From Clavaria fumosa (Eukaryota > Basidiomycota > Agaricomycetes > Agaricales > Clavariaceae), in the NCBI GenBank assembly GCA_951802425.1, contig OX637801.1, positions 2,356,001 through 2,420,000 on the forward strand: DNA of 64,000 nt. Direction: 5' to 3'. Of the stretch, positions 1-63,441 are shown piece after piece. Both the position numbers and the translations under genes were made by a program. The notes under the pieces were generated by a model, which was not told the origin of the DNA, did no database searches, and was given only the letters and a program-made list of their open reading frames with translations. Every line of letters starts with the position of its first letter. Within the stretch, counting starts at the first letter, position 1.

Positions 1-348
1 CCGGCTGCTTTTTGGTATGCATAACATAGGAGCTGCTTGCGATGCCGCTCCTGCTTCCCACCAACCGTTAGTAATATAACGGTTCACTTTCTCAAGGAAT
101 TGTTCCTTAAATGCCTCAGCACACCGAGGCAGGTAATAATTATAGACTTGCTTTTCGTCTATTAAGGGTATGCAGTGGTTCACCGCCCGAAACGGCGGCA
201 GTCTGGGTGGAACTCCCCCAAAGAGCTCAGCGTACTGGTTAAACCAGTACTCACGCCTGCCTTCGAGGTAGGCGTCGTCTATCTTTACAGAGGCGTTAGC
301 CTCTCCCCCCTTCCAGGGCTCACCCGCATCCCGGGGGCCCGAGTGTAG
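1..348 (-). CDS. Start of pol of C' (partial)
   Basis: Downstream of the UGA at 351-349 the same reading frame stays open to the window edge. It encodes the linker and the first part of the reverse transcriptase (NGWWEAGAASQAAPM, CIPKSS), as in the full copy at 32035-32380. No ATG lies at the start, so expression would need readthrough of the UGA or a separate mechanism. Confidence 0.7.
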
Positions 349-3003
349 TCAGCTCTTTCGAGCTCCCTTCCTCAGCGCGTTCTTAGCTGATATACGGACA
401 TGTAATGCTTCCGTCTCCTCACTGGGCGACATCGCCTGAAGGGTTTTTCCCTTCCCTTCGCCAATCCGGATTGCACGTCGGTGCACATCCAGTATCACAC
501 GGCGGTCATACATGAACGCCGTTCCGACTATGATATCATAGCAGTCGATGTTCGCTATATCAAAATACTGGTCCTCCACCAGTATTTCTCCCAAATCCAC
601 CGCTACGCGGCATCCGCGTGTGATCGTCGATCGGCTGCCGATACAGCCGAGTTGGATAGGAACTGGATTATCCAGTTGGAAGGTTGGTACCTTCGTCACC
701 CGGGCAAAGTCCGGGCTCATCAGGTCTGGGGTACTTCCAGAATCGAGAAGCGTATACGCTTTTACACCGTTCACGGTGATGTAGGCCGCAAGGCATTGCC
801 TAGCCTCCTTTGTTACTACCGGGCGTGATCCCGTCCGCTCCTTCCGGATGTGCGCCCGAAATGGCCTGTCGTCGACATGGCCGACGCGTACTTCTGTCGT
901 GTAGAGGACTTCGTCCTCTTCTAATTCCCGGATTCCAGCGACCTGGTCGCTTTCCGCCTCCTCCTCGAGCTCGTCCGAATCGTACTGGTCCCCGTGACCA
1001 GCGTAGTCGTCTTCCGCAACTTCCTCTGGTAGGGCTTCACCCTCCGGCTCCTCGCTTTCAACCGCCGGTGTTTCCGGTGGTTCCTCGGGCTCCAACTCGC
1101 CCGGCTCCTCTTGTAAGGCGTAGTTCCTTACATTTCCCCTCAAAGCCTCTGGCTTTCGCTGTGACTGAGGGCACACATTCGCGTAGTGCCCTGCTTTCCC
1201 GCACATATAGCATGTTAGAGGAGCTTTCCGCTCCTCTCTGCCTCGTACCCCTATCTTGGGCACCGCCTTAGGCGGTTCTAGCCGGGGTTTGCTTCCTCCG
1301 GTTTGCACGCGCTCGTCTCACGCGCAGTCGATCCGCAGGGGAACAGGTTCCCCTGGCCTATGGTCTGTGTGCAGCCGATACGGCCGCAGTCTCACAAACC
1401 TCTGCCCCACAGGCACTCTGCCTGTAGGCGGGTTTCCTTTGGGACCTGCCTGGTTCCCTACCGAAGGCACCGCCCTCCGCTGCTGGAGGTAGTGGAGGGT
1501 CGCTTCCACTTGGCGACTAGCATCGATAATATCCTCAACCGAGGATAACTCGACGCTAATCGTGGGAGTTTTGAAGATGGCCTCCACCATCTCGTTAGGC
1601 AGTCCGTTAAGGAACTGCCTTTTCATCGTACCGGCATCAGGCGGGGTGAGCATTCTCTCCGCTGCCTGGGCCAATTCGTTCCAGAAGCCCAAGGTGCCCT
1701 TCGCCTTTGTAAACTTCACCTGATAGAAGGCATCCACTGCCTTCTGTGCCGTTACCTTGGTCAGGAACCGCTTAAACATAGCGGTTATCAATTCCTCGAA
1801 GGTCCACCTTCGAGGAGCACAGGATAGACCCATTACTTCTTGGGTATACCAAGTAGCGGCTATTCCGCTTAAATGTGACCCCGCTAGCATAACGCGTTGG
1901 TGCTCCAACTGCGGGCCGACTACTCTATAGAAGTAGAAGTAATTAAGGAGGCCATCGAGCCACCTTTCCCAGACGACGAGGTCGTCTCGTCCGTCATAAA
2001 GCTCAGGGGGGTCAATCTTAATCCCCCTAATCTCAGCTATTGCCTCAGGCAATAGCGAGGTTTTATCTCGTATCATCACGAGGTAGCGATGTAATACATC
2101 GCTCTGGTAGTTTGTAGAACTCGGGGACACCTCCCGAGTAATCTCCTGCTCCTTCTGGGGCGGTTCCATCCATCCGAACGGACCCATCCGGCCCGTTGGC
2201 TCTCGCTGACCCAGCTGTGGGTAGCGCGACATAAGCCGCGGCTCCGGCCCCGCTATTTCTCGAGGGCTACCGCCCTCCATTCCTGGTTCGCCAGGGGTTC
2301 GAAAACCATCCGCGCGGTTCTCCCTTCGCCACCCTTCCTCGCGGTCGGCTGGCGCCTGACTCGGCGGGGCAGGCCCCGCTTCGGGTTCCACCGAATCACG
2401 GCGTTGCCGCCATAAGGGAGCCGCTAGCGCGGTTCCCTGCTCATCTAGCGAGTCCAGCACCCGCCTAACACGGGTAGCCTCCTCGCTTAGCCATTGCCGA
2501 ATAGTGGCTTGGCGATTTTTCATCGCCCTTACAAGAGCCTCAAACTCTTCATCCTGGCGGGAAAGTTCAGCCTGAATGTCCGAGAGTCTCTCGGCTACAG
2601 CGTTAGCTCGCGCTATCGCTGTAGGCTCATCTCCACTATTGGAGGGAGCCCGCGAGCTTGACCGCTCTCGCGGCCACCTCTCGCGGGTTTCTAAGGGCTC
2701 TCTGCCCTTTCCTTTTGAAGGTCCGGCCTTCTCGAGTGATGGCGCTTCGCCAGTGACTTGGCGCGTTGTGGCGCCCTCCTCGTGGCGATTGCCACGTGTC
2801 GACGGCGTTTCGGACCTAACGCCGTCGTCAGGGGCCGGTGACGCCACGTCAGCCCTTAGCGGGGGCTCACCGCTGGGCTCGACAGAGGGTCCTATTCCCT
2901 CTGGCTGCGCGACACCTGTGTCGCGCAGAGGTCCTACCAAGGGAGGAGTTTCTCCTCCCTTCCTGTTGTGCTTCTTCTGCGCGGCTATATGGGTGTAACC
3001 CAT
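349..3003 (-). pseudogene. gag-protease ORF of C' with one nonsense codon
   Basis: The gag-protease protein of family C reads from ATG at 3003 to the UGA at 351-349. It has a charged, Pro/Glu-rich N-terminal half, a Gag core, a CCHC zinc knuckle CYMCGKAGHYANVC and an aspartic protease with active site DSG (TLLDSGSTPDLMS). The frame is broken by TGA at 1320-1318; the other copy has CGA at the same codon, so this is a single C to T change. Relative to the full copy it lacks 18 bp (six residues) in the acidic spacer before the protease. The other copy's private stop is CGA here, so the two copies have independent lesions. Confidence 0.85.
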
Positions 3004-3041
3004 TTCTAGCCACACTCGTTGTGTTGAAGGTTCAAAAAAGT

Positions 3042-3268
3042 TGTAATACTTTCTATCCCTCAAAAGAACCGGACTCAACTGTATATTGAGTATGGTAGTT
3101 CTATGTAGAGGGATCTACCCTCTCTGTACAGTCGCGACGCGATATATATATAGGCGAGTGGCCCTCTAGGGGCCGCTGATGTAAGCATGGCCTAAGCGGC
3201 TATGCTAGTAGACTATTATAGTATGTATATTATGTAATAAAAGAATAGAAAAGGCCTATAGCCTTACA
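3042..3268 (-). repeat. 5' LTR of family C copy C'
   Basis: 227 bp, near-identical to the two LTRs at 29097-29323 and 37720-37946. It begins TGTAAGGC and ends ATTACA on the minus strand and contains a TATATATATA box. Confidence 0.93.
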
Positions 3269-28930: not shown

Positions 28931-28949
28931 GTAGATCTTCACATATATT

Positions 28950-29096
28950 AGCAAAAGGATGCTCAAATTGGCATAAGCTTGCACATATATTAGCATAAGC
29001 TTGCACAAATTGGCATAAGCCTGTGCATCTAATAGCATAATTCTGCACAAATTGACTTAAGCTTGCACATATAATAGCATAATTCTGCACAAATTG
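28950..29096. repeat. Minisatellite, left part of a split array
   Basis: Units like GGCATAAGCTTGCACAAATT and variants with ATATATTAG. The array continues at 37947 after the family C insertion; AATTG at 29092-29096 is the duplicated target. Confidence 0.88.
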
Positions 29097-29323
29097 TGTA
29101 AGGCTATAGGCTTTTTCTATTCTTTTATTACATAATATACATACTATAATAGTCTACTAGCATAGCCGCTTAGGCCATGCTTACATCAGCAGCCCCTAGA
29201 GGGCCGCTCGCCTATATATATATCGCGTCGCGACTGTACAGAGAGGGTAGATCCCTCTACATAGAACTACCATACTCAATATACAGTTGAGTCCGGTTCT
29301 TTTGAGGGATAGAAAGTATTACA
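29097..29323 (+). repeat. 5' LTR of family C
   Basis: 227 bp with CCTATATATATATCGCG as TATA region. Inverted repeats such as GAGGG/CCCTC occur here too. The gag frame is open back into the LTR, but its first ATG is at 29362. Confidence 0.93.
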
Positions 29324-29361
29324 ACTTTTTTGAACCTTCAACACAACGAGTGTGGCTAGAA

Positions 29362-32034
29362 ATGGGTTACACCCGTATAGCCGCGCAGAAGAAGCACAAC
29401 AGGAAGGGAGGAGAAACTCCTCCCTTGGTAGGACCTCTGCGCGACACAGGCGTCGCGCAGCCAGAGGGAATAGGACCCTCTGTCGAGCCCAGCGGTGAGC
29501 CCCCGCTAAGGGCTGACGTGGCGTCACCGGCCCCTGACGACGGCATTAGGTCCGAAACACCGTCGACACATGGCAATTGCCACGAGGAGGGCGCCACAAT
29601 GCGCCAAGTCACTGGCGAAGCACCATCACTCGAGAAGGCCGGACCTTCAAAAGGAAAGGGCAGAGAGCCCTTAGAAACCCGCGAGAGGTGGCTGCGAGAG
29701 CGGTCAAGCTCGCGGGCTCCCTCCAATAGTGGAGATGAGCCTACAGCGATAGCGCGAGCTAACGCTGTAGCCGAGAGACTCTCGGACATTCAGGCGGAAC
29801 TTTCCTGCCAGGACGAAGAGTTTGAGGCTCTTGTAAGGGCGATGAAAAATCGCCAAGCCACTATTCGGCAACGGCTAAGTGAGGAGGCTACCCGCGTTAG
29901 GCGGGTGCTGGACTCGCTAGATGAGCAGGGAACCGCGCTAGCGGCTCCCTTACGGCAGCAACGCCGTGATTCGGTGGAACCCGAAGCGGGGCCTGCCCCG
30001 CCGAGTCAGGCGCCAGCCGACCACGAGGAAGGGTGGCGAAGGGAGAACTGCGCGGACGGTTCTCGAACCCCTGGCGAACCAGGAATGGAGGGCAGTAGCC
30101 CTCGAGAAATAGCGGGGCCGGAGCCGCAGCTTATGTCGCGCTACCCACAGCTGGGTCAGCGAGAGCCAACGGGCCGGATGGGTCCGTTCGGATGGATGGA
30201 ACTGCCCCAGAAGGAGCGGGAGATTACTTGGGAGGTGTCCCCGAGTTCTACAAACTACCAGAGCGATGTATTACATCGCTACCTCGTGATGATACGAGAT
30301 AAAACCTCGCTATTGCCTGAGGCAATAGCTGAGATTAGGGGGATTAAGATTGACCCCCCTGAGCTTTATGACGGACGAGACGACCTCGTCGTCTGGGAAA
30401 GGTGGCTCGATGGCCTCCTTAATTACTTCTACTTCTATAGAGTAGTCGGCCTGCAGTTGGAGCACCAACGCGTTATGCTAGCGGGGTCACGTTTAAGCGG
30501 AATAGCCGCTACTTGGTATACCCAAGAAGTAACGGGTCTATCCCGTGCTCCTCGAAGGTGGACCTTCAAGGAATTGATAACCGCTATGTTTAAGCGGTTC
30601 CTGACCGAGGTAACGGCACAGAAGGCAGTGGATGCCTTCTATCAGGTGAAGTTTACAAAGGCGAAGGGCACCTTGGGCTTCTGGAACGAATTGGCCCAGG
30701 CGGCGGAGAGAATGCTCACCCCGCCTGACGCCGGTACGATGAAAAGGCAGTTCCTTAACGGACTGCCTAACGAGATGGTGGAGGCCATCTTCGAAACTCG
30801 CGCGATTAGCGTCGAGTTATCCTCAGTTGAGGATATTATCGACGCTAGTCGCCAAGTGGAAGCGACCCTCCACTACCTCCAGCAGCGGAGGGCGGTGCCT
30901 TCGGTAGGGAACCAGGCAGGTCCCAAAGGAAACCCACCTACAGGCAGAGTGCCTGTGGGGCAGAGGTTTGTGAGACTGCGGCCGTATCGGCCGCACACAG
31001 ACCGTAGGCCAGGGGAACCTGTTCCCCTGCGGATCGACCGCGCGCGAGACGAGTGCGTGCAAACCGGAGGAAGCAAACCCCGGCTAGAACCGCCTAAGGC
31101 GGTGCCCAAGATAGGGGTACGAGGCGGAGAGGAGCGGAAAGCTCCTCTAACATGCTATATGTGCGGGAAAGCAGGGCACTACGCGAATGTGTGCCCTCAG
31201 TCACAGCGAAAGCCAGAGGCTTTGAGGGGAAATGTAAGGAACTACGCCTTACAAGAGGAGCCGGGCGAGTTGGAGCCCGAGGAACCGCCGGAAACACCGG
31301 CGGTTGAAAGCGAGGAGCCGGAGGGTGAAACCCTACCGGAGGAAGTCGCGGAAGACGACTACGCTGGTCGCAGGGACCAGTACGATTCGGACGAGCTCTT
31401 CGTCCTTGAAGAGCTCGAGGAGGAGGCGGAAAGTGACCAGGTCGCTGGAATCTGGGAATTAGAAGAGGACGAAGTCCTCTACACGACAGAAGTACGCGTC
31501 GGCCATGTCGACGACAGGCCATTTCGGGCGCACGTCCGGAAGGAGCGGACGGGATCACGCCCAGTAGTAACAAAGGAGGCTAGGCAATGCCTCGCGGCCT
31601 ACATCACCGTGAACGGTGTAAAAGCGTATACGCTTCTCGATTCTGGAAGTACCCCAGACCTGATGAGCCCGGACTTTGCCCGGGTGACGAAGGTACCAAC
31701 CTTCCAACTGGATAATCCAGTTCCTATCCAACTCGGCTGTATCGGCAGCCGATCGACGATCACACGCGGATGCCGCGTAGCGGTGGATTTGGGAGAAATA
31801 CTGGTGGAGGACCAGTATTTTGATATAGCGAACATCGACCGCTATGATATCATAGTCGGAACGGCGTTCATGTATGACCGCCATGTGATACTGGATGTGC
31901 ACTGACGTGCAATCCGGATTGGCGAAGGGAAGGGAAAAACCCTTCAGGCGATGTCGCCCAGTGAGGAGACGGAAGCATTACGCGTCTGTATATCGGCTAA
32001 GAACGCGCCGAGGAAGGGAGCTCGAAAGAGCTGA
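29362..32034 (+). pseudogene. Family C gag-protease with one nonsense codon
   Basis: From ATG 29362: an N-terminal region rich in Pro, Glu and Arg, a coiled-coil-like stretch (AVAERLSDIQAELS, LVRAMKNRQATIRQ), the Gag core (DDLVVWERWLDGLLNYFYF, ATWYTQEV), a CCHC knuckle CYMCGKAGHYANVC at 31153-31194, an acidic spacer and the aspartic protease (TLLDSGSTPDLMS). TGA at 31903-31905 is CGA in C', so it is a private nonsense change. The family frame ends at UGA 32032-32034, followed by CUA, and pol continues in the same frame. Confidence 0.87.
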
Positions 32035-33285
32035 CTACACTCGGGCCCCCGGGATGCGGGTGAGCCCTGGAAGGGGGGGGAGGCTAATGCCTCTGTAAAG
32101 ATAGACGACACCTACCTCGAAGGCAGGCGTGAGTACTGGTTTAACCAGTACGCTGAGCTCTTTGGGGGAGTTCCACCCAGACCGCCGCCGTTTCGGGCAG
32201 TGAACCACCGCATACCCTTAATAGACGAAAAGCAAGTCTATAATTATTACCTGCCTCGGTGTGCTGAGGCATTTAAGGAACAATTCCTTGAGAAAGTGAA
32301 CCGTTATATTACTAACGGTTGGTGGGAAGCAGGAGCGGCATCGCAAGCAGCTCCTATGTTATGCATACCAAAAAGCAGCCGGAACCCGCTGCTACGGACA
32401 GTCGTGGACTGTCGGAAACGGAATGCGAACACAGTACGGGATATTACCCCATTGCCTGATCAGGACCAGATTAGGCAGGACGTGGCTAGAGCCGCATATA
32501 GGTCAAAGATTGACCTATCGGATGCGTACGAGCAAGTACGCGTAGAGCCTGAGGACGTGTGGAAGACGGTGTTCGCGACTGTCTTGGGCACCATGTTCTC
32601 ACAGGTGATGCAGATAGGGGATTGTAATGCCCCTGCTACCTTCCAGCGCCTGATGACGCATATATTTCGTCATCAATTGGGAAAGTACGTGCACGTGTAC
32701 TTAGACGATGTATTCGTCTTCTCCAAGACACTGGAGGACCATGAGCGTCACTTAAAGACGGTCTTTGAGACCCTCAAAGGCGCGAGCCTTTTCTTGAGCA
32801 AGAAGAAGTGCTCGTTATACGCGAAGAGCGTAGATTGCTTAGGGCATATTATAGATGCCCGAGGAATCCACGTCACAGTGGATAAAATGGATAAAATCCA
32901 TAACTGGAAAATGCCGACAAGCGTTAACGAGGTGCAGAGGTTCCTCGGATTAGTACAGTACATCGGACAGTTCATGCCTGATCTGTCCGCTTACACTGGC
33001 CCTTTGGCTAGTCTGTGTAGTGAAACGCGAACGTTTCACTGGAGACCACTCCATGACAAGTGCATGGAGATGATTAAGGCATTGGCGTGTAAAACGCCAA
33101 TATTACGCCCGGTAGACGCGGCAGTACAGGAGCCAATCTGGCTCGTGTGCGACGCGTCAGTGTCGGGCGTAGGGGCCATGTATGGCCAGGGAAAGACATG
33201 GGAAACCTGCTGTCCGGCGGGGTTTATGTCTAAAAGGTTTAGCCCAGCCCAGTTTAGTTACAAACCTGGGACCGGGAGGCCTTAG
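32035..33285 (+). pseudogene. Family C reverse transcriptase and RNase H start
   Basis: Same frame as gag. RT motifs: CIPKSSRNPLLRTVVDC, YRSKIDLSDAYEQVRV, GDCNAPATFQRLM, the catalytic YLDD in VHVYLDDVFVFSK, and the thumb (GLVQYIGQFMPDL). RNase H begins at WLVCDASVSGVGAMYGQG. A 1-bp loss near 33272 (expected KPWEREAL) shifts the frame into TAG at 33283. RT proper looks complete; RNase H is broken in the middle. Confidence 0.87.
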
Positions 33286-35176
33286 CGATTGTAGAATCGC
33301 TACAGAAATGGGAGGATAAACTCCTCGGTAGACGAATCAACGTGGTCACCGACCACGAAGCGCTGGGGTTCTTTAAGAACCAAACACGCTTGTCTGGCTG
33401 GCAGGCCAGGTGGATGGAATATATGGAGAGGTTTAACTACTCCATCACTTACATTAAAGGCGAGAGCAACAAAGTTGCGGATGGCCTTTCGCGTTACCAT
33501 ATGAGTGACGCGACGGATGAGATTCATCTGGATCACGAGTACGTAAAGGCGGACGTTCGCCTTGACCCGGAAGGGGACGAGTTGCCCCGCGGACGCCTGG
33601 AGGAGGTGCGCGCACTACGAGTACGCGCACCTGCCATGGACCAGGAGACCGAGCAGGAGCAACCGCCGCCTATGCCCCAAGCGGACGGGGATGTGAGGGA
33701 CGAGACGCTCGTGCCCTTAAGGCCCCGCGTGGAAGGGGGGGATAGCAGGATGCTGCAAAGCATCCGGGACGGCTATGAACAGGATCGCCTGTTCAAAATA
33801 ATTTTGGAGAAACCGGGAAACTACACTGGTTTTAAGATCAGGGATGACCTGATCTTAGCTGAGAATAAAAAAGGAGACGAGGTGCTCTGTGTGCCTCGTA
33901 CCCCTCATGAAGGGAAAAGCATCCCTGGGAGAATAATCCAGGAAGCCCATGCGGTCCTAGGACACATGGGGGCGCGGATAACGATGGATTACGTCCGCCG
34001 TTACTACTGGTGGCCATCGGTGTCTAAAGACATCGATAAGTTTTGCTCATCGTGCGGCGTGTGCCAAACGAGCAAGACTTCCCCTCAGAAGCCACAGGGG
34101 CTTCTACACACCCTTCCAATCCCCAGGCGGCCCTGGGAATCAATAGGAATGGACTTCGTAGGTCCATTTCCTATGTCGAAAGAGGCGGACTACCTCTGGG
34201 TGGTGATCTGCCACCTCACTTCACTGGTACACCTAGTACCAGTTACCGTTTCGGTAACGGCAGCAGAGCTAGCCTGGCTCTTCCTAACCCAGGTAGTGAG
34301 ACTGCATGGGTTGCCAGGATCGATTGTGTCCGATTGTGATCCGAGATTTACGTCTGCCTTTTGGCAGGAAACACACCGATTACTCGGTGTCAAGCTGCGG
34401 ACCAGAGAGACTGGGCGGAGCGAATCCCAATGGTCGAATTCGCCATTAACGCATCAATAAGCGCGTCGACGGGGTTTGCCCCGTTTGAGCTCACCTATGG
34501 GTACATGCCCCAGATGATGGCAGAGTTGCCAGACGACCTCCGGGCGGTGCCCAGAGGGGTACGGATGTTCGCGGAGAAAGCCGCGCTCAACCTTGCAATG
34601 GTGCACAACGCAATTATAGAAAGTCGCGTCCACCAAATGTTTTATGCTAACCAGCGTAGACGGGCAGAGCACCCGTTTAGAGAGGGAGAATTAGTCTACC
34701 TCTCAACGGAGAACTTGAATCTCCCTAAAAAACGAGCTAGAAAGCTCATGCCGAAGTTTATTGGGCCATACCCAATACGGTCATGTAGACCGGAATCGTC
34801 TACGTACGAGCTGGAGCTCCCCGACTCGCTAAAGTCGAGGAGAATCCACCCGACGTTCCATGTCAGCCGGTTGCGGCGACATGAACCAAACGACGACGCG
34901 TTGTTTCCGCGTCGTGAAGTGAAAGTCTTTTATGACTTTGGTGTGGATCCAAAGGAGGAATGGCTAGTAGACGCCATTATTGGCCATAGGTGGGAAGGCC
35001 GCCACCTGGAATGCGAGGTTCGATGGAACCTTGGGGATACGACCTGGGAGCCATACATGGGGGTCAAAGAGCTGGCTGCTCTAGACCATTACCTTGAACT
35101 ACAAGGTGTAGACTCGTGGAGGGTGCTACCTAGGCGCCCTCGAGCAGAGCGCGGACGGAATGCCCACGTGGAGTAG
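33286..35176 (+). pseudogene. Family C RNase H end, integrase and chromodomain
   Basis: In the shifted frame: VTDHEALGFFKNQTRLSG (RNase H), integrase zinc finger (HAVLGHMGAR to CSSCGVC), core with D in GMDFVGPFP and in VSDCDPRF. At about 34400 roughly 90 bp are missing, including the HPQTDG/TE block with the third catalytic residue, and the frame shifts. It resumes at DQRDWAERIPMVEF, runs through the C-terminal domain (LMPKFIGPYPI, RRIHPTFHVSRLR) and ends in a chromodomain (EEWLVDAIIGHR, DTTWEPYMGV). The integrase cannot be active. Confidence 0.86.
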
Positions 35177-35279
35177 TAAACGTGATCGAGCCAGACCGCT
35201 GGGTTGTTAGCCACAGTGACTAAGTCATGTGGTGGCTCCACCGTAAGGTACAAAACCTTAAGAGGGCCTGCCCTCTTTT

Positions 35280-35298
35280 TCTCTTTTTTCCTCATCAG
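35280..35298 (+). promoter_or_regulatory. Strong 3' splice site before ORF3
   Basis: A pyrimidine tract of about 25 bases ends in CCTCATCAG at 35298, only 12 bases before the ORF3 ATG at 35311. This is the best-looking acceptor in the element and suggests that ORF3 is translated from a spliced mRNA. The donor was not identified. Confidence 0.6.
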
Positions 35299-35310
35299 CC
35301 ATTTGTTACA

Positions 35311-37422
35311 ATGGATGATCCGATGGGGGAAACCCCATCTCCTCGCGCTACCCGCGCCGCCGTCCCTGGCCTTGCGCCAGGGAACTCGCTGCCGACGAGC
35401 ATCGTCGGAACGGCTGGGTTGTCCCAGCCGTCGTTGTCGCAAGGGGAGGAAACTCTCCCCTGGGTCCAGGATCGCATGATCCATGCGATCACCCACGGAT
35501 CCCGGTGCACTCAGTGTATCGGATTCCGTCGTCACATCTTCAAGTCGCTGCTGCACTCGGACGAGGCGTTTCAACAAACGCTTAAGGAAGCGCAGGAAAG
35601 CGCTAAGCGTGAGCTCGAGCCGGAGCTCGGAATGATACAACGCAAGTTGGATGACTTGCATGAAGAGTATGAGAAGGGCAATGCCCTTTGCGCCGGGCAT
35701 CGGCAAAAGCTTGAAAAAGCTTACAATAGCCTGGATAAGGTCGAGGCCGACCTTAGAAAGGCGAAGGAGAAGGTTCTCTCCTTGACAGAAAAGTTGGCAA
35801 GCGCCAACGAGGAGCTCGCCACGGTGCGAACGGCGGCGAAAGGGAAGGGACCTGACAGGGATCCCTTGGAGCGGGACCCTAAAAGGGCCCGCACTGCTGT
35901 CTCATACGCGGACATAGCGCCGCCTATGGGGGACGTGGACGTCCCCATGAACATTGAGGAGGGGTATCCCCCTCTTCCACCTGCTGGTGTTAGCCAGCAG
36001 AACCCCGATGCCTCACTGAGGCATAAACGAACGTTTGCGGAGACGGTGCTTGCGCCTCCGACAAGGGGTTATCCCTTTAATGCCCCCCACCCGGACAGGG
36101 CTCCGGATGGCTATCCCTGGCCATCGGGGATGTCCGTCAAGCCCGGGGCGTGGGCTGTCGAGTTGAAGACGGTTGAAGAGGTGATAGCCCTCAACCAGCA
36201 GGCGCACCATGGAGCGCCTGACGGCAGTTATGATATGACTGCCGTAATGAAGATGCGATGGGCCGTTAAGGAGGCCCAGAAGAACGCGGCAGCGGGAAAG
36301 CTGCCTACGCCAGTTGAGGACTGGCTGTTGAGGAACTGGAGAGTTCCTGCCGGCATCGAGAAATCGGCAGACCGGGTGGCACGCCATCTGCAGGGGCAGA
36401 TGTTGCGAGAGAGCGGAGGGATGGGCAACCCATCCCTGAGGGCAGGACCCTTGGAAGTCGCAGGAGGGGGAGCACCCTCCTATCCGTCGTACCAGACATT
36501 GCCGCTGACAGTGGCAAGAGTGGTTGCGCCTCCCATTAGGGAGTTTGTAGAGACTGGGGAGCCGTTGCTCCCCCAAGAGCTGTGGCTCTCCTTTGTAGGG
36601 GAGAAGGGAGAAATTCCCCCTATGAACCCGAAAGGCGACAGAGGCGCAGTGTCAGACCTGCACTGCTGGGCCGCCGACATAAGGATGGGCAGAGCGGCCG
36701 TCCTTGGTATTGATAAGGACGGGGATTCACCCCTGTCTTTTGCACGTAAGGTGGCCATCTGGCGTACCATAATGGCGTGCGCACCGTCCCGGGCCCGAAT
36801 GCGGCGCCCGTTCCTAGCAATGGCTGTAGCCCTCTTTGTGTCAAAGGGGGCATACGCGCAGGCCATTAAAGGGAGAGTCCTCCCTGCACGACGTTCCAGG
36901 CACTGGAACACAAAGATAACGCCAACCGTCGCGCAGACGATTGAGGCGTTTGTAGATGCCGGAGTCTCCGTTGGGGAAACGGAGTTCTGGGACGAGTTTG
37001 TACTTGTGTGGGCACGCGAGTACGTGCGAAAGGGGAATGCCCCCTTGGACGATGATATCCAGCTAGCGCTGGGTGAACGGGAGAAGCCTCCCATACCGCC
37101 CCGGACATATGCACTGCTAGAGTGCATAGGGCACGGGGCGCGTCCGTGCCGTCTTCGGTTAAGCGAGAAGGTGGGAGACGAACGGAGGGGCGATGTGCCC
37201 CTGGAAGACGGTGGAAGCACGTCCACCGTTAGAAACCCCCTAGGGCTACCTATTGGGGGTTTAACAATATCCCAGACAGAGGGTGCGGGGCCCTCTCAAA
37301 AACAGAAGAAAGCGGCTAAATCATCAGCCGCTAAGGCCGCGAAGGGGCCTGTTGTGTCGTCGCCCGACTGGAGCGACGACGAGGGCGAGCTGCCATGTGA
37401 CTACGAGCAGGGCTCGGACTAA
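35311..37422 (+). CDS. ORF3 of family C, unknown function
   Basis: 703 codons from ATG 35311, intact, on the element's coding strand between chromodomain and 3' LTR (the frame is open from 35227, upstream of the acceptor). Visible parts: a Pro/Ser-rich N-terminus; CTQCIGFRRHIFK; a long coiled coil at about residues 85-165 (EAQESAKREL, LEKAYNSLDKVEADLRKAKE); a basic patch DPKRART; a middle part with PVEDWLLRNWRVPAGI; a conserved-looking C-terminal globule (DLHCWAADIRMGRAAVLG, WRTIMACAPSRARMRRPF, DDDIQLALGEREKPP); a Lys/Ala stretch and acidic end SPDWSDDEGELP. No signal peptide or membrane segment, so it is not a typical envelope gene. I do not recognise it. Confidence 0.75.
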   Translation: MDDPMGETPSPRATRAAVPGLAPGNSLPTSIVGTAGLSQPSLSQGEETLPWVQDRMIHAITHGSRCTQCIGFRRHIFKSLLHSDEAFQQTLKEAQESAKRELEPELGMIQRKLDDLHEEYEKGNALCAGHRQKLEKAYNSLDKVEADLRKAKEKVLSLTEKLASANEELATVRTAAKGKGPDRDPLERDPKRARTAVSYADIAPPMGDVDVPMNIEEGYPPLPPAGVSQQNPDASLRHKRTFAETVLAPPTRGYPFNAPHPDRAPDGYPWPSGMSVKPGAWAVELKTVEEVIALNQQAHHGAPDGSYDMTAVMKMRWAVKEAQKNAAAGKLPTPVEDWLLRNWRVPAGIEKSADRVARHLQGQMLRESGGMGNPSLRAGPLEVAGGGAPSYPSYQTLPLTVARVVAPPIREFVETGEPLLPQELWLSFVGEKGEIPPMNPKGDRGAVSDLHCWAADIRMGRAAVLGIDKDGDSPLSFARKVAIWRTIMACAPSRARMRRPFLAMAVALFVSKGAYAQAIKGRVLPARRSRHWNTKITPTVAQTIEAFVDAGVSVGETEFWDEFVLVWAREYVRKGNAPLDDDIQLALGEREKPPIPPRTYALLECIGHGARPCRLRLSEKVGDERRGDVPLEDGGSTSTVRNPLGLPIGGLTISQTEGAGPSQKQKKAAKSSAAKAAKGPVVSSPDWSDDEGELPCDYEQGSD

Positions 37423-37719
37423 GCGTCCGAGCCCTTTAAAAACATATGCCTACCCCGCAGGACGAGACAGCGGCACTTGGGGCACCCCCCACCAGGGCGT
37501 GCCGCTCGTGACACGCTGTCCAACTGGGGGCAGGTCGCGCAGACCACTGGGTAGGACCCGTCAGCACCAGGCGAAGGCCCCAGGAGGGGATCGCGCCCGG
37601 TGACATGGTGGTAACCCTGCCCAAGGGGATGCGCCCCTTGTAACGCTATTCTACTTCTGCTCGTCGTCCCGCGCCGCCCGCGCGTTGCCTCTGGTTGGGG
37701 CCTCTCCGGAGGGGGAGGG
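37423..37719 (+). other. 3' untranslated end of family C
   Basis: No gene. Ends with the polypurine tract GGAGGGGGAGGG (37708-37719) used to prime plus-strand DNA. Confidence 0.75.
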
Positions 37720-37946
37720 TGTAAGGCTATAGGCCTTTTCTATTCTTTTATTACATAATATACATACTATAATAGTCTACTAGCATAGCCGCTTAGGCCA
37801 TGCTTACATCAGCGGCCCCTAGAGGGCCGCTTGCCTATATATATATCGCGTCGCGACTGTACAGAGAGGGTAGATCCCTCTACATAGAACTACCATACTC
37901 AATATACAGTTGAGTCTGGTTCTTTTGAGGGATAGAAAGTATTACA
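37720..37946 (+). repeat. 3' LTR of family C
   Basis: 227 bp, differing from the 5' LTR at only a few positions. Followed by target duplicate AATTG. Confidence 0.93.
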
Positions 37947-38330
37947 AATTGACATAAGCTTGCACATATAATAGCATAATTCTGCACAAATTGGCATAAG
38001 CTTGCACAAATATTAGCATAAGCTTGCACAAATTGGCATAAGCTTGCATATATAATAGCATAATTCTGCACAAATTGGCATAGGCTTGCACATACATTAG
38101 CATAAGCTTGCACAAATTGGCATAAGCTTGCACAAATTGGCATAAGCTTGCACATATATTAGCATAAGCTTGCACAAATTGGCATAGGCTTGCATATATA
38201 ATAGCATAATTCTGCACAAATTGGCATAAGTTTGCACATATATTAGCATAATTCTGCACAAATTGGCATAGGCTTGCACTTATTTCTGCACAAATTGGCA
38301 TAGGCTTGCACATATATTAGCACACATTTG
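37947..38330. repeat. Minisatellite, right part of the split array
   Basis: About 18 imperfect units of GGCATAAGCTTGCACAAATT type, alternating with ATATATTAGCATAATTCTGC variants. Continuous with 28950-29096 if family C is removed. Confidence 0.9.
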
Positions 38331-53581: not shown

Positions 53582-56338
53582 TCACAAGTAGAAGCATCGC
53601 TCTTTAAGCCCACGCATACCCAAGAGATCCTGTACAACGGAAGAAAAAAAAAATGACGCTTTTTCTTGGAACGTTGGGAATTGGAAGCCATACCCAGTCG
53701 GCTGCGGTGAGCCATAAGTCGGCAACTCCATCCATCTTGCCCAGGACGGCCGCACCCTTCCATACTAACACGCGCGGGTCTACCTCTTTCGGCGGCGGGA
53801 TGATCTGCACCTTCTCCATATTTGGAACGAGGGTTGCGATCACTTGCAGCCTGTGGTCACAAGAAACGTCATCAGCAACGTCCCTGCACAAAACCAAGAT
53901 AATAATAATAATCGTGGGGGCATACCGGCTCTCCAAAGCGTGGGCGATGCCCGGAACCAGTGCCGTGCCGCCAATGACCAAGACCGCCTGCAGGTACTTG
54001 CGCACCTTCTCGTCCCCGCCGGCGGCGCGGGTGCTGTTGAGGATCGCGACGTCCAGGGGCAGCTTGCTTGCCTCGAAGCAGACGTCGATGGAGTCCGCCT
54101 CGTTTGGCGGCGCCGGAGCCGGCTTTGGCTGCGCGTCGGACGCGGCAGCAGTCCCCGCTTTCGGGCCGTCGTTCTCGATGTCGATCAGTTCCGCCGCCGC
54201 TGCCGCTGCCGCGTCGGTGCCGGCGCCTGCTTCGTTAGTGGCGGTTGCGGGAGGAGTGGTGTGCTCCTCGGGAGCAGTAGCTTCCTGCTGTTCGGGTTCG
54301 GCGCCGGCGGTCTCCCCTAGATGAGCACCGTGAAACTAGGCGCGCTAGTGGCAATGAGCTAAGTGGTCATACCGCTTTCAGACGGCACAGGCGCGCTATC
54401 TCCTGGAGACGGCTGGGGAAACAAGTGCTGCGTGGATGTGATCATGACACGTGTCTGCCGGAATTTCAGTACGATACGCCCCCTTTTCGTAACGTACACG
54501 GTAAGTAGCTCACCACATGCTCTGGCGAATGGTCTAGGATCCCGTCGGAAACATCAGGATGAGAAGCAGGCCACATCCCGATGCGTTTGTTCTCGAAATC
54601 GATGACGCGTGGTTCAAATAGACACTGCCGGAAAGTGTCACGTTAAGCATACTCAACTAGGAAATGAGTATGGATACCATAGGTGCGAGGATAACCTCAT
54701 CGTAGGCTCTTAAACCATACTTTTCCGTTGCTTTGTTTGGTTGACGGACGTCAAAATCGTAGAGATTAAGAGCAACGTCTCCCTAAAATCTCGAAATGCT
54801 CCAAGATGCCCACATCACAGGTAAACAAGGACTTACCTCTGTCAACGTACAAATCCTCGTTTTGAGGTCTTCCATGACATTCCAGTCGTATGACCGGGTC
54901 AGGTCAATGGAACGATAAGGAAATTCGATGCGTTTCAATAATACGTAGAGGAATTCAGTAATATCGTCTCCACCAATAGCCAGCGAAATTCTGAACCTCA
55001 GGTGTAAGGAACACGGCATGGTTAACGGCGAGCAGTACTCGCCTCGTGTCAGGAATAACAAGGCCCTCGTCTACACAAGCGATAGAGGTCTTTACCGCAC
55101 CGATATCGACAACGCACGCGTTGGATATGCCGGCGCCATACGTGGCGGCCAAAGACTCCTACGCCAACTTCCGTTGAGCAAGAGATGAGAATGTGGCGAG
55201 TTACTGCGCACCTGCTGTGCACAGACTTGTTTGAAACCCATTGTCATTAGCAAAAGATTGATCCAATCGCGAGCGTATGGGCGCTCGTACAAGTCGGGTA
55301 TGACGAGGACTACAGAAAAATTCTGCAAGAGCAAGCTGAGGACGGAGGTTGACACAAGCTGAACTAAAATACCTTGAACTCCTTTGGATCGATATCAAGC
55401 TGTTCAAGGCCGGAACGAAGTAATGCCTCGATGTCGTTCATAATCATTTGTGGTGAAGTATAGTCTCGCGTGTTGAATTGCCCGCCATATATCGGTCGCC
55501 GGACGACATAACCCTGACGGGCTGGGTCTGCTAATCGCAAAACCTATCCGCCTTGTCCTAAGAATCGAAGTCAATAGGCTAGCGCATAACGCACTTGCTC
55601 GCCGACGAGGACATTTTCGCTATCTCCACGAATCCAATCTATCCGGAATGGGTCGTTTGCCTCGCGAATAGTTTCCGGCATGAATTGTTCGTTAAATGTC
55701 GATGCGATACTAGCTGTATTTTCTGTAACGGGCAGCTTATAGAAACGCATCCTATCACGTAACGAGACAGTGATGTTTTGGACTGCTGTATCGAACTTGG
55801 ACTTTGTAAGAAGGGTTACATGCACGAGTGAGGGCATATAAGTTCTCACTGGGTCGTCTGAGTCGAGCGGCACATCGTGTTCGTCGGCGGTGGGAGAACG
55901 CGCAGGATAAGTATTCCGTTTTGGAGACCGGGGACGCTGAATGCGCTGAATGCTTGAAGGCGCTTCTGCTACTTTGGCCGTTTTCCGTGCAATAATGGCG
56001 GGTATAGACAAAGGGGTCACGTCGCAAGCCTTGCCGATGCGCGTGAAACGCGACCCAGGATGAATGACAAGTACTTGGGAGCCGCGCCTGTGCTACCTCC
56101 AGATTTCGCGACGAGTGACGAAGTCCAATGGGAGGAACCGCACCTTGTCTCTACCTCCTCTGCGTTGCCTTTTCGCGCGGTGTTATTCCGCCACCAAAGT
56201 GTATTCTGCTCAAATTTCAGATAGCTCGCGCCAGTGTTCTTTGGATTGGGTCTGGAATATGATGACCTTAAGTGATGCAAATGCCGGAAACAAAGCAAAG
56301 ACAGACCCCAGAGGCACATGGAATGTAGTGTAGCGCAT
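53582..56338 (-). CDS. arp8: Actin-related protein Arp8 (INO80 complex)
   Basis: Many short exons. Exon 1 (56338-56307) MRYTTFHVP; exon 2 (56251-56144) NTGASYLKFEQNTLWWR; exon 3 from 56087 with VIHPGSRFTRIGKACDVTPL and SIPAIIARK; then LRLADPARQGYVVRRP, VLVIPDLYERPYARDW, the actin-fold signature GAGISNACVVDIGAVKTSIA and CVDEGLVIPDTR, GGDDITEFLYVLL, an acidic/Ala-rich insert, VIGGTALVPGIAHALESR and the end GLKERCFYL (stop 53582). Arp8 binds actin and nucleosomes within INO80. The two long acidic inserts are expected for the family. Exon 2/3 joining uses a GTGCGG donor. Confidence 0.92.
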
Positions 56339-56823
56339 ACCAGTCTCATCTCGTTTGGCGTTTGGAATACCTCGAGGCATCGTGGTTATGGTTCAAGGGG
56401 GCTCAGCCTAACTTACGAGCGTCTGTTCAATCCCAAACATGGAAAGACCTCGATCAAATCCGCTACGACTCCACGAGACTCAGAGACGGTTATTGAATAT
56501 TGAACTCTCGCTCTAGTCTATTCGGCCACGTTTTCAGTGCTCTAGTCAATCTGAAAATGTTTGCAGATCCCGAAGTCCAGAATAATATGTTGGCACTTTC
56601 AGTCAGCTCTCGTCCCTAGCTTCCATGATGTAGTCCAGCAACTTGAAATACTTGACATGTGGGCTATGAATTGTTGCATCTAGCAACTGTCAAAACGCCG
56701 GTTTGAAAACTTGTTGAGAATTTGCACTGTAACCGAAAGCCGATGTTCTTCTTTGGCTGCTGTATCTACTGGATGACTATGACTATGACTGGATGATATC
56801 CCAGTGCCACGTGGTACGGCATT
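56339..56823. other. Intergenic between arp8 and LINE
   Basis: About 480 bp upstream of arp8. No gene or repeat recognised. Confidence 0.5.
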
Positions 56824-56836
56824 TGTCTATCACGTG

Positions 56837-57461
56837 CATTTGGAGAGGCTAACGCTCTCGAACCCCCAACCACCAAACCGGGAACAGTCTTTGTCCAACT
56901 AGAAGACCAGCCCGAAATATTCGGACGACTTACCCAAGTACGCACAATGCACGGCTACAACCTGCCGTACTTCGAGCGAATGAAAATACCTCACGAGCCC
57001 GAATGCTCATGTGGGGACACCATCCCCCTCACCCCACCGACGCGATTTCGAGATCACATCCTCCACAACTGTCGCACGTACGAAGAGCACCGACATATAC
57101 TGACCGCGGTACATCACGACCACTCGCCGCCGGTACTACTCAGCGGCACGAAAGGCCTACTCGCAATTGCGAAATTCCTACACCTCTCCGGCGCCTTCAC
57201 GGCCACCGGCAAACCCTACGAACCACCAGCGCTGCCAGTACTACCTGGCCTCGACCTATCAGACTCTGCCTCCTACCCAACGGAGCCACCAGACCCGCAC
57301 TAGACAAAAGAAAGTCCAACCACCAAACCCCCCCAATACGCCTCCCAACCCCACATAACCCTACCACTTAATCACCTTACGTACATCACGTACAACCGCG
57401 TCTTTGTCTTAGCCACATGTTGCGGGATACAAATGCTGATTCAAAAAAAAAAAAAAAAAAA
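56837..57461 (+). mobile_element. 5'-truncated LINE with poly(A), TSD 13 bp
   Basis: The insertion ends in 19 A residues (57443-57461). The 13-bp sequence TGTCTATCACGTG occurs on both sides (56824-56836, 57462-57474), the mark of target-primed reverse transcription. Only the 3' end of the element is present. Confidence 0.92.
56839..57303 (+). pseudogene. C-terminal part of LINE ORF2
   Basis: The frame is open from the insertion edge to a stop at 57301-57303. It contains the C-terminal zinc-binding region of fungal LINE ORF2 proteins (CSCGD, FRDHILHNCRTYEEHRHIL) and the typical LSGTKGLLAIAKFLHLSGAF. RT and endonuclease are absent. Confidence 0.82.
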
Positions 57462-57728
57462 TGTCTATCACGTGACTGCTGAGGAGTTCGCCGATCGCGT
57501 AATGCGACACAGGGAGAACATTCAGTCATGCAGGCCTACGGGACTTTAAATCTCGACAAAACGCGCGGATATCAAAGGATCTAGCCTGCCACTCCGTGTC
57601 TTCACGAACAGCTTCCGGATGGTACCCCATGATTTCGATGACGCTTATCTTATTACCCGGCTGATACACTTACAGGAGCTGGTTCGCACAGCTATCTCGT
57701 TCTATTCAGCTCACTGACAACCCCCTCT

Positions 57729-60088
57729 ATGAGTCTATTGCGCGACGTACTGACGAGGGCAAATCCGCAGGATATCGATGTCAACTTAAGGCTAAAGGCT
57801 TGGGCCATCGCCAAAAATAGCATTCTCCCCGTCGGTACGCCATGCTTGACACAATGCTTCCAATATTCTCACGACGGCCTAGCATGTAAGAAGGTGCATA
57901 AGCGTCGGCGGCCTGACGTCTCGCGTCTTGGAGCACCTAATTGGAGTGATGGCGACCCCTGGGGGATTCTCCATTTCGTTGGATCGCAATCGGCACTGGA
58001 GTCTAACGAAATACCGACAACGGCTGCATGTGGTCATTCTATGAAACTTAACGACAATTCATGCCTTTCTGTCATTCTTTATCACCACGGCCATGAGGGT
58101 TCGAAGCAGGCTGAATATTTCGAGCGTAGTATGACTTCACTCATTCACCTCTTGAAATACCTGAATAACGTAACACCAGCAACCGTGCGAGGGGAGATCC
58201 GTATGTTTCTGCCGAAATCAGAAAGCCTCAGCTCTGTGGATGTCTGGGTAAATCTGTCAGCAAATCGTGCCGAATTTGAAGCTAAATAGCTCTGCCCAGC
58301 TAGTTTCTTACTCAACGAGTTTCGCGAATGCAGTGTCTGCACACTTCCACCTTCAACACGCAAATCTCTGGGAAAGGTCAAAAGGTATTTGTTGTCTGAC
58401 AAGTTTACAATCGACTTACAAGATCGAAGGCGAACGCTTTTCCCGTGGTGTATATAGTTTTGTGAGGATTCTTGTTCTCTTTCTTGCATTGTCGTCAGAC
58501 CAAGCATTCTTTATTCAGCCCTTCGAGTTCGAACCGTTCCCTGAATATGTGGAGGTTCAATGCCCTACCACACAAGTAAGAGGACCCGTTATACATACAG
58601 CACTTTGATATTTAAAGCCTTGCTAGACCCTCTCCTTGGTCCCTTTCCCTCGTACGTGTTCCGCGATTCACCCCGCTTGTGAAACATTTAAAAGGGATCC
58701 AGCTTCGTATGAGTTCCATGAGGTTGGCGGGTTCTCAGGTAGCATCAAGCATCAAGTCCGTGTGAGAATTCAGCGCGCTTCATTCGGCTCTCAAAATGAC
58801 GAGTACGTTCTTCGCATTGCATTAATGCTAAACCATGTCACTGATGCCGATCAGGTTTAAGATCCCCATCCATTTCTCACCTCGCCGCCGTCCCATTCCC
58901 CGACGCATCAATTCGCCTCCTTCCATTCGTTCCCGGCAATCTTGGCCTTATCAGAGAGGCCTGGTCGGTGGCTGGATGGTCACGCCTTTTGGCGGGAGGG
59001 GCCGCTTTCAGGGCGAGATGACAGAAATCGAGGGCTTGGTGCGCCCCTCGCATCTGTGATGCCTTGTTTTGAGCTCATTCAAACCACCAGCTCTGCGTCC
59101 CGTCTCCCGAGGTTTATTGCTCTGGAGAAACCCTCTCCTTCAGCCTTCAGCTCTGGTCCCCGGATGCTAACGCCCTCGATGCTCTTAGTGATCCGAGCTC
59201 CTTTGATGTCATGTTTGTCCACGCGGACATGTACGGCCCCAGCGTCCTGCATCCGAGTAATGCCTCTCGTCACCACCGTCTGTTGCAGAGGCTGTCTCAA
59301 GGACGCGTGTGGAGAGCGGGCGAGGCTCCCTCAGCTTTAGAAGAACCTTTTCGGCAAATCAAAGGGCAAGAGGTTGTAGAGTTGTATACGAAGTCATCGG
59401 CGGGCGTCAAGCCCCACGCATCACCAAAGGCGCGGTCCAGGAATCTGGCATCTTTCGTGCGCAGAGGCCCTCACCCATCCAGATTTCAGCAAGTCTACAA
59501 TGCTACAACGCACTGTGAGTTACTGCATGCTTGCCGAGACGCAGGCTACAAACAAACATCCAGATGAAGAGTCACAAGAACTATTAAACACCCCCAATCC
59601 TTCGTTCGAGAATCTGGATTCGTCATCACAAGAAGGAAATTCGGTCAAGCTAGAGGGAGAGCTTCGACTGCCATTACACTTGAGCCCGAGTTTTCGGTTT
59701 TCTTACATGGGGTTTGTTATGCCAGATCGATCTTTGTCTGGTCGCTCACGTTCCCTTACAGGCGTGAGGTACGAGCATCGAAGGCTTCTCTGAATCATTC
59801 ACTGATGTCCTCGTGAACCCAAAGTACGCGCTGATCATTATCATCAAGCATCCAGACTACGTGCAAATATCTCCCGCGACCCCAGGCGTCGTCGCTGAAA
59901 CACCGATCTGGGTGGTCTCTGGTGCGACCTGCGAGATTGCCACGAGGATCAGAGATTCCGTGTCGCTACCAATTTCTGGAGAGGTGATCGTGGGTGCTAC
60001 ACCAGACATGATCCGCGCATCGACCGTTCGTGGTGTGAATATCGCAAAAGTAACCCCATCAACTAGTCAGGGCGGACTTGATCTGTAG
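57729..60088 (+). CDS. Arrestin-like domain protein (exon limits uncertain)
   Basis: Several exons on the plus strand. Recognisable in order: GSIKHQVRVRIQRASFG, joined over a 52-nt intron (GTACGT...ATCAG, 58802-58853) to FKIPIHFSPRRRP; RGRFQGEMTEIEGL, joined over a 54-nt intron to CVPSPEVYCSGETLSFSLQL; KLEGELRLPLHLSPSFRFSY; KYALIIIIKHPDYVQI; TPIWVVSG. This pattern fits basidiomycete arrestin-fold proteins, which act as cargo or ubiquitin-ligase adaptors at membranes. The first ATG and the exons before 58500 are not settled; 57729 begins a long open frame that may be part of this gene or separate. Confidence 0.5.
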
Positions 60089-60199
60089 CATACCACTTTA
60101 GCAAACATTACGTATGTGAGTTTCTGTCTGTAGATTTCCGTCTCACCCTGTGTGTTTGTATCCCGCTACACAAAGTTGTCCTCGAATATCTCTCCTGAA

Positions 60200-63175: not shown

Positions 63176-63264
63176 GCGAGTGTTGGTCTGAAGTACTGAA
63201 CTCTGAAGTGCTGAATGTTGAGCACATGACCCAACACTTTGATATAAAAAAAGACAAAAACAAA

Positions 63265-63348
63265 GGGCCTGACCGGGAATTGAACCCGGGACCTCCTCGA
63301 ATTCAGGGTTAACCCTAACAAGGAATCATACTACTAGACCATCAGGCC
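63265..63348 (-). tRNA. tRNA-Pro (AGG) with 12-nt intron
   Basis: 84 nt on the minus strand. Acceptor stem GGCCTGA/TCAGGCC, D-arm GGTCTAGTAGTATGATT, anticodon stem CCTTG/CGAGG (one G-T), T-arm GTCCCGGGTTCAATTCCCGG, discriminator C as usual for eukaryotic proline tRNAs. Between the anticodon stems lie 19 nt: a 7-nt loop with AGG plus a 12-nt intron. CCCT in the intron can pair with AGGG at the anticodon. Confidence 0.9.
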
Positions 63349-63441
63349 GGTTATTTACAGTGCCACCACAGACATCGACAATGAATCAAACGTCTCGCGT
63401 CATAGCTTGCGCGGCGTCAGCAGTGGCGTTCAGCTCAAGAC

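What the first reader, a model, noticed from the sequence alone, without database searches (positions are those of the whole stretch)
29097..37946. Retrotransposon saturated with short perfect inverted repeats over 8.8 kb
Seen directly: family C has perfect hairpin-like inverted repeats every few tens of bases through LTR, gag, pol and ORF3. Examples (left arm, centre length): AAGGGAGGAG 29404, 3; AGCGATGTA 30262, 1; GCTATTGCCT 30309, 1; AACTGGAT 31706, 1; AACCGTTA 32299, 6; ATAGGTCAA 32498, 3; AGTGAAACG 33019, 4; ATTGGCGT 33081, 5; TGAACAGG 33776, 4; TAAGATCAGG 33833, 5; ACTGGTAC 34223, 5; GTTACCG 34242, 3; ACGGCTGGG 35410, 4; ACGGCAGT 36221, 9; GGGATGGG 36418, 3; GGGCTCGGA 37410, 7. A hand estimate for random sequence is about one repeat with arms of 8 or more per 8.8 kb; a partial reading found well over ten. 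Families A, B, D and host genes do not look like this. I know of no such description for a Gypsy element. Possible roles: an ordered genomic RNA (packaging, stability, escape from silencing) or a reverse transcriptase that copies its own arms by template switching.
Basis: partly seen in the sequence, partly recalled or inferred. Interest (0 to 1): 0.92.

Follow-up and report, generated by a model that had tools for sequence, protein, structure and literature searches.

The report
Jumping gene packed with perfect hairpins
A retrotransposon (a jumping gene that copies itself through RNA), likely in a mushroom genome, carries about nine short perfect hairpins per thousand bases along its genes, 17 times as many as shuffled sequence, and they are likely kept by selection because they would make its RNA fold tightly on itself.

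Summary
All 16 listed inverted repeats exist as given. The element (29097-37946, exactly LTR to LTR, target duplication AATTG) holds 77 perfect hairpins with arms of 7 or more, against 4.5 in dinucleotide shuffles, and its main ORFs also exceed synonymous-codon shuffles. All 53 aligned genomic copies share the density, as does a second copy at about 1-3268. Host-like sequence and several other Gypsy families do not. The predicted folding excess (mean z about -4 on both strands) equals that of the RNA phages MS2 and Qbeta, with 2-4 times as many perfect hairpins.

Transversions carried by several copies avoid stems (11 of 1028 stem columns, 94 of 3205 outside, p 0.0005), private ones much less. 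I favour selection for a self-folded RNA (0.45); the rival is mutational self-templating (0.28). Three hairpins with arms of 9-12 show loop inversions, one apparently recurrent, but yeast genes show the same. For the rival: 5'-arm purine polarity, extreme perfection, little G-U at stem ends. Against it: one compensatory transversion pair. No DNA of relatives in other species could be reached.

The parts
29097..37946 (+). LTR retrotransposon (family C), hairpin-saturated
   Evidence: Hairpin counts; LTRs and target duplication; Pfam domains
29092..29096 (+). target-site duplication AATTG, left
   Evidence: read directly
37947..37951 (+). target-site duplication AATTG, right
   Evidence: read directly
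29097..29323 (+). 5' LTR (TGTAAGG...TTACA, 227 bp)
   Evidence: (98% identical over 232 bases)
37720..37946 (+). 3' LTR (227 bp)
37708..37719 (+). polypurine tract GGAGGGGGAGGG before the 3' LTR
   Evidence: read directly
29251..31905 (+). gag and protease ORF (stop to stop); 24 hairpins (arms 7+)
   Evidence: RVP_2; zinc-knuckle motif read by eye
32035..33285 (+). reverse transcriptase / start of RNase H; 9 hairpins
   Evidence: RVT_1 E 2.9e-25
33258..34460 (+). RNase H end and integrase; 11 hairpins (10 in the trimmed count)
   Evidence: Integrase_H2C2
34340..35176 (+). integrase C-terminal part with Tf2-1-like SH3; 3 hairpins (2 in the trimmed count)
   Evidence: SH3_Tf2-1
35224..37422 (+). 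ORF3, 732 aa, no Pfam match; 28 hairpins, the densest part
31010..31029 (+). hairpin CAGGGGAAC/GTTCCCCTG, loop 2; its centre differs by several bases in copies L027 and L029
33019..33040 (+). hairpin AGTGAAACG[CGAA]CGTTTCACT; loop is inverted to TTCG in copy L026
37409..37435 (+). longest perfect hairpin found in this copy (11-bp arms, loop 5)
1..3268 (-). second copy of family C (gag/protease part inside the window, the rest beyond it); 28 hairpins in 1-4000 against 1.9
   Evidence: the end at about 3268 is extrapolated from the alignment

Best explanation
This is a Ty3/gypsy-type LTR retrotransposon whose coding sequence is packed with short perfect hairpins, and these are most likely kept by selection for an RNA genome that would fold on itself as a chain of small local hairpins, as in single-stranded RNA phages. 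Shown: the hairpin excess, its presence in all 53 copies aligned, the predicted folding excess on both strands, and the rarity of stem-breaking transversions in lineages that spread. Inferred: that the RNA folds this way in the cell, and that a benefit to the RNA is the cause. Predicted use: hairpins that form as the RNA is made would leave little single strand for antisense copies, small RNAs or other element RNAs to pair with, so the RNA would avoid long duplexes and the silencing they trigger; arms of at most 11-12 bp would stay below what Dicer-type enzymes cut (general knowledge, not tested). Perfect Watson-Crick arms fold equally in sense and antisense strands, which would explain the lack of strand bias. 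Strand switching likely flips the loops of the longest hairpins as a side effect (flips shown, mechanism inferred).
For: Excess over dinucleotide and synonymous shuffles. Mean z -3.96 (sense) and minimum-free-energy excess 24%, against MS2 -4.65/30%, Qbeta -3.96/30%, PP7 -3.47/24%, SP -2.49/19%. Density 5.4-10 hairpins (arms 7+) per kb in 53 of 53 copies. Shared transversion columns in stems 11/1028 against 94/3205 outside, odds ratio 0.36, p 0.0005; private ones 42/1028 against 166/3205, 0.78, p 0.18. By type, of 112 shared transversions 11 break stems where 26.1 are expected (p 0.0002) and 8 make them where 4.8 are expected (p 0.11). Only one compensatory transversion pair, so broken stems seem lost rather than recopied. 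Noncoding parts of the window copy are poorer in hairpins than coding parts (2 for 8.05, p 0.013). RT residues in stems follow the consensus of 120 homologues as well as others do (0.65 and 0.65).
Against: Other ways of counting are weaker: with stems defined over all copies, 27 of 90 shared transversions lie in stems where 32.8 are expected; and private breaks are also depleted (37 of 221 for 51.5, p 0.011; arms 7+ 27 for 31.1, p 0.25). One search classified shared sites by a majority rule but took its expectation from single copies; one search uses one rule for both. If all 8 gains were mis-polarised breaks, the shared depletion would be 19 for about 26 (my arithmetic) and no longer clear. 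G-U is not favoured at stem ends (G:T to A:C 22:33, against 80:44 in four phages, p 0.003; at seed 5 no difference, 21:19 and 23:19). Arms are more perfect than in MS2 and Qbeta. Stems are hardly richer in GC than the element (0.59 and 0.56). 5' arms are purine-rich in 94 of 127 unbalanced hairpins (p 6e-8), which phages do not show (33 of 78). Pairs in which coding leaves no synonymous choice are barely avoided (38% for 41%, arms 7+), less than in phages (33% for 42%). In full copy L031, whose noncoding count includes broken ORF stretches, noncoding is not clearly poorer (14 in 1612 nt, 74 in 7317 coding). No RNA data.
Confidence: 0.45

Rival explanations
1. Self-templating: during synthesis of the sense strand (for example plus-strand DNA made by the element's own RT) the new 5' arm would fold back and be copied into the 3' arm, so chance near-hairpins are ratcheted into perfect ones without any benefit.
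For: Perfect arms of 8 are 44-fold over shuffles, while arms with one mismatch other than G:T or A:C are 3.3-fold (MS2 10.7 and 5.9, Qbeta 22 and 3.9). At arms of 8 or more the 5' arm has near-background purine content (0.585; flanks 0.574) and the 3' arm the complement; codons in 3' arms are atypical (p 0.018) and those in 5' arms typical. Loop inversions at three hairpins, one needing 6 steps among 21 copies where 22 control transversions need 1-4. Correction towards the 5' base is proposed in PMC8794818 (passages). Pairs fixed by coding are barely avoided.
Against: Only 1 compensatory transversion pair (each state in two or more copies) although 105 columns are transversion-polymorphic; copying of 5'-arm changes should give more. 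Noncoding parts of the window copy have fewer hairpins, not more. Flips were seen only with arms of 9-12, much as in yeast genes, so they need no special RT. At arms of 6 and 7 the 5' arm is more purine-rich than background (0.66, 0.62), and it does not follow local composition. RT residues coded by stems are not more deviant; 3' arms deviate more than 5' arms only as a trend (p 0.22-0.34). A window control also has polarity, of the other sign (4-26 kb, 14 purine-rich to 35, p 0.004), so polarity is not proof of this mechanism.
Confidence: 0.28
2. Both: strand switching supplies perfect arms and selection for a folded RNA keeps those that help, as proposed for rRNA stems in PMC8794818.
For: Loop flips together with depletion of shared stem breaks.
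Against: Few arm-correction events in the recent family.
Confidence: 0.17
3. The hairpins are binding sites for Gag or another element protein, spread along the RNA for packaging.
For: Loops are A-rich (0.32 against 0.25 in shuffles) and 5' arms purine-rich.
Against: Arm sequences differ from hairpin to hairpin; four-base loops show no clear shared motif (GNRA 5 and UNCG 0 of 44, where shuffles would give about 2; read from the other strand 3 and 3). Other loop motifs were not searched for.
Confidence: 0.06
4. An artefact of composition, codon usage or a few tandem repeats.
For: None found.
Against: Dinucleotide, codon-order and synonymous shuffles all fail to reproduce it in the four larger ORFs; the arms differ.
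Confidence: 0.01

Closest known systems
Genome-scale ordered RNA structure (GORS) of persistent positive-strand RNA viruses (search listing only: e.g. PMC3695492, PMC3950689)
   Same: Excess predicted folding along coding genomes beyond shuffled controls.
   Different: Those are RNA viruses; here it is an LTR retrotransposon that passes through DNA, and much of the excess lies in short perfect hairpins.
ssRNA phage genomes (MS2, Qbeta, PP7, SP)
   Same: Similar z and folding excess on both strands (SP somewhat lower).
   Different: Phages have 2.0-3.8 perfect hairpins (arms 7+) per kb against 8.7 here, use G-U more at stem ends (first length tested), and show no 5'-purine polarity.
Coding palindromes in Nematomorpha mitochondrial genes (PMC6649704; abstract and Discussion read)
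   Same: Perfect inverted repeats inside conserved coding sequence, with little excess of imperfect ones.
   Different: Those reach 284 bp, here 11-12 is the longest seen; mitochondrial genes, not a mobile element.
Template-switch footprints at inverted repeats in yeast genes (PMC8604942; abstract and one section read) and rRNA genes (PMC8794818; abstract and passages)
   Same: Loop (spacer) inversion at perfect arms above 9 bp, recurrent at an 11-bp, 2-base-loop hairpin.
   Different: Those are scattered events; here whole genes are dense in hairpins.
   Same: RT and RNase H domains.
   Different: Whether relatives share the hairpins is unknown: only their proteins could be seen.

Membership tests
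Ty3/gypsy LTR retrotransposon | two LTRs with TG...CA ends and a short target duplication | tested here: met
   227-bp LTRs, AATTG duplication
Ty3/gypsy LTR retrotransposon | protease, RT, RNase H, integrase in that order | tested here: met
Ty3/gypsy LTR retrotransposon | polypurine tract before the 3' LTR | tested here: met
   GGAGGGGGAGGG
Ty3/gypsy LTR retrotransposon | tRNA or self primer-binding site | tested here: inconclusive
   no complement of 8 or more bases between the primer region and the LTR; tRNAs not compared
GORS | folding energy below shuffled controls along the whole genome | tested here: met
   93% of 43 sense windows z < -2; 24% excess
GORS | structure under selection | tested here: inconclusive
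   stem depletion of shared transversions, weaker by another count, and no covariation beyond one pair
GORS | RNA shown to fold so by probing or imaging | not testable with these tools
   no RNA data
Hairpin template-switch system | loop inversions between fixed arms | tested here: met
   three hairpins, arms 9-12
Hairpin template-switch system | arm homogenisation events | tested here: not met
   1 double change of the transversion type among 53 copies
Nematomorpha-type coding palindromes | long perfect arms, tens to hundreds of bp | tested here: not met
   longest arm 11 in the window copy, 12 at the flipping hairpin of other copies

The most novel reading that the evidence does not exclude
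An LTR retrotransposon has turned its protein-coding genome into an ordered chain of perfect mini-hairpins, as strongly folded as RNA phage genomes, as armour that keeps its sense and antisense RNAs from pairing and so from being silenced.
Probability: 0.35. Interest if true: 0.88.

Novelty: new variant of a known kind. Interest (0 to 1): 0.74.

Why it matters
Genome-wide RNA folding is known from RNA viruses and phages. If a retrotransposon family with more than fifty copies in one genome has it too, its DNA copies give a natural record of which stems broke and which lineages still spread, so whether such folding is selected can be tested by counting. It would also be a handle on how mobile elements escape RNA-based silencing, or, if the rival is right, on a mutation process that writes hairpins into genes.

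Tried and rejected
Two early loop-flip 'events' in L034 were artefacts of a reverse-oriented fragment in its flank and are not counted. A further candidate (AAAAGC with a near-palindromic loop) was dropped as uninformative. In one search, 29 reverse-complement, 22 reverse and 12 complement differences with two or more transversions were found in all; only those flanked by arms of 5 or more count as flips (2 reverse-complement, 0 reverse; 1 complement, which is the same GG/CC site); the third flip (GGT/ACC) has one transversion and is seen only. Nine copies of a control Gypsy family gave 0 flips in 119 loop pairs. In one search the stem counts with support of 10 or 15 copies are circular and not used; those with support of 2 are weak (arms 7+ 17 for 22.9, arms 8+ 9 for 13.4). 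One search compared minus-strand copies unturned; one search corrects it. Variant pair states rest on a noisier alignment and are superseded. One search defined stems from single copies and is replaced. G:T against A:C states among copies carry little information because shared variants are dominated by C>T and G>A decay on both strands (164 and 175 outside stems). Transition 'compensations' (162 of 163) are taken as CpG decay and not counted. 'Only synonymous sites were used' was rejected: forced pairs are 0.38, where about 0.20 would be expected; but phages are at 0.33, so this separates the explanations only weakly. The folding excess does not lie only in hairpins with arms of 5 or more: with them removed z is still -1.1, and -2.0 after random removal of as much. 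Searches for DNA relatives in viral and prokaryote contigs found none.
Full report
What was checked. All 16 repeats in the finding are in the sequence as stated. A full scan finds 79 perfect hairpins with arms of 7 or more and loops of 0-10 in 29097-37946. With loops of 1-10 the count is 77, against 4.5 in 100 dinucleotide shuffles; gag, RT, IN and ORF3 each exceed all 300 synonymous-codon shuffles, the short ORF 34340-35176 does not (3, shuffle maximum 3). The excess rises with arm length: 1.1-fold at exactly 4, 2.5 at 5, 6 at 6, 17 at 7, 21 at 8, 28 at 9. About 30% of the element lies in hairpins with arms of 6 or more. The excess fades beyond loops of about 14-17; mirror repeats, counted without a control, show nothing like it.

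What it is. The given coordinates are exactly one LTR retrotransposon: 227-bp LTRs, AATTG target duplications, a polypurine tract, protease, RT, RNase H, integrase and a Tf2-1-like SH3 domain, and a third ORF with no Pfam match. The window copy has its pol reading frame split over several ORFs, while some other copies keep one of 1077 aa.

Where it occurs. The RT search scored 100 of 1868 candidates, all 73-100% identical, so the copy number is a lower bound. In 53 aligned copies the density is 5.4-10 hairpins (arms 7+) per kb, where about 0.5 is expected. A second copy fills about 1-3268 on the minus strand. Of 17 other Gypsy loci compared (L035-L042, L044-L052), 11 from one family and its nearest relatives show 2.3-4.6-fold excess and 6 show 0-1.7-fold; the element at 14789 shows 2 against 1.3. 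Host-like sequence at 39-64 kb is 0.2- to 1.7-fold, 4-26 kb 0.9- to 2.7-fold, and the two repeat-bearing stretches beside the element 4-5-fold.

How strong the fold is. Over 200-nt windows mean z is -4.3 on the sense and -3.9 on the antisense strand. In the same run as the controls, the element gives -3.96 and a 24% energy excess; MS2 -4.65 and 30%, Qbeta -3.96 and 30%, PP7 -3.47 and 24%, SP -2.49 and 19%; E. coli 16S and 23S -0.81 and 6%. The style differs: 8.7 perfect hairpins (arms 7+) per kb against 2.0-3.8 in phages; G:T to A:C at stem ends 22:33 against 80:44 (p 0.003), though not at the next length (21:19 and 23:19); and purine-rich 5' arms, 94 to 33, against 33 to 45 in phages and 7 to 3 in rRNA. 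Window controls for this polarity are 24 to 24 (39-64 kb) and 14 to 35 (4-26 kb, p 0.004), so other sequence can be skewed too. Interior single mismatches show no G:T preference in C, MS2 or Qbeta.

Is it selected or written by mutation? Most differences between copies are C>T and G>A decay, so I used transversions. Columns with a transversion in two or more copies fall in stems 11 times in 1028 stem columns, against 94 in 3205 others (odds ratio 0.36, p 0.0005); private ones 42 in 1028, against 166 in 3205 (0.78, p 0.18). The direct count of effects gives 11 shared breaks for 26.1 expected and 8 gains for 4.8 expected; private breaks 37 for 51.5 (p 0.011) and gains 13 for 9.4. A count with stems defined over all copies is weaker: 27 of 90 shared transversions in stems, 32.8 expected. 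On balance, lineages that spread seem to have kept their stems. A self-templating process would also restore stems, but by copying changes from one arm to the other; only one compensatory transversion pair was found, although 105 columns are transversion-polymorphic. RT residues in stems are as close to the consensus of 120 homologues as the others. Noncoding parts of the window copy have fewer hairpins than coding parts (2 for 8.05 expected, p 0.013); in L031, whose noncoding count includes broken ORF stretches, they do not clearly (14 in 1612 nt). These points favour selection.

Against selection stand the perfection of the arms, the 5'-purine polarity, the atypical codons of 3' arms (p 0.018) and the weak avoidance of pairs that coding leaves no freedom to adjust. 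These fit a directional copying process. The polarity could also follow from folding during transcription, where a purine-rich 5' arm stays unpaired until its partner emerges; that is my inference, untested.

Loop flips. Three hairpins carry loops that are exact reverse complements between copies in the same context: GG/CC with 11-12-bp arms (15 and 6 of 21 copies), CGAA/TTCG with 9-bp arms (only L026), and GGT/ACC with 9-10-bp arms (L024 and L028). The first needs 6 steps on the tree of the other columns, no fewer than shuffled labels (mean 5.4), while 22 control transversion sites need 1-4; recurrent flipping is the simplest reading, exchange between copies another. The same happens in yeast genes, only at arms above 9 bp and recurrently at an 11-bp, two-base-loop repeat (PMC8604942, section read). 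The flips therefore point to strand switching at the longest hairpins; they do not explain the many arms of 6-8.

Literature. Eight searches listed no description of a retrotransposon saturated in this way; I saw only the titles and abstract beginnings of the rows listed, several lists were cut, and subscription journals are mostly not covered. The closest printed cases are the Nematomorpha coding palindromes (Discussion read) and the template-switch account of RNA stems (passages).

Verdict. The mechanism is open: selection for a self-folded RNA 0.45, self-templating 0.28, both 0.17.

Noticed in passing
28940-29096 and 37944-38279: The element sits inside a 42-bp tandem repeat; its target duplication AATTG is part of the unit.
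   Followed up: partly
35089-35901, 36013-36651, 36480-37295 (minus strand): Antisense stop-free frames of 212-271 codons overlap integrase and ORF3.
   Followed up: no
about 34399: The window copy lacks about 66 bases that full copy L031 has, near the end of the integrase frame.
   Followed up: no
L001-L030: Shared variants between copies are mostly C>T and G>A (164 and 175 outside stems), as if methylated CpG decayed after insertion.
   Followed up: partly
56001-64000: Host-like sequence has fewer perfect hairpins than its shuffles (6 for 16.3 expected, arms 6+).
   Followed up: no
L035-L040, L042, L044-L046, L049: A distant Gypsy family (about 28% identical in the RT part) and its near relatives have 2.3-4.6-fold hairpin excess, about 1.3-2 per kb (arms 7+), near the lower end of the ssRNA phages.
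   Followed up: partly
L034 flank: A reverse-oriented fragment of the same family lies next to this copy.
   Followed up: no
4000-26000: Hairpins here are skewed to pyrimidine-rich 5' arms on the plus strand (35 to 14), the opposite of the element.
   Followed up: partly
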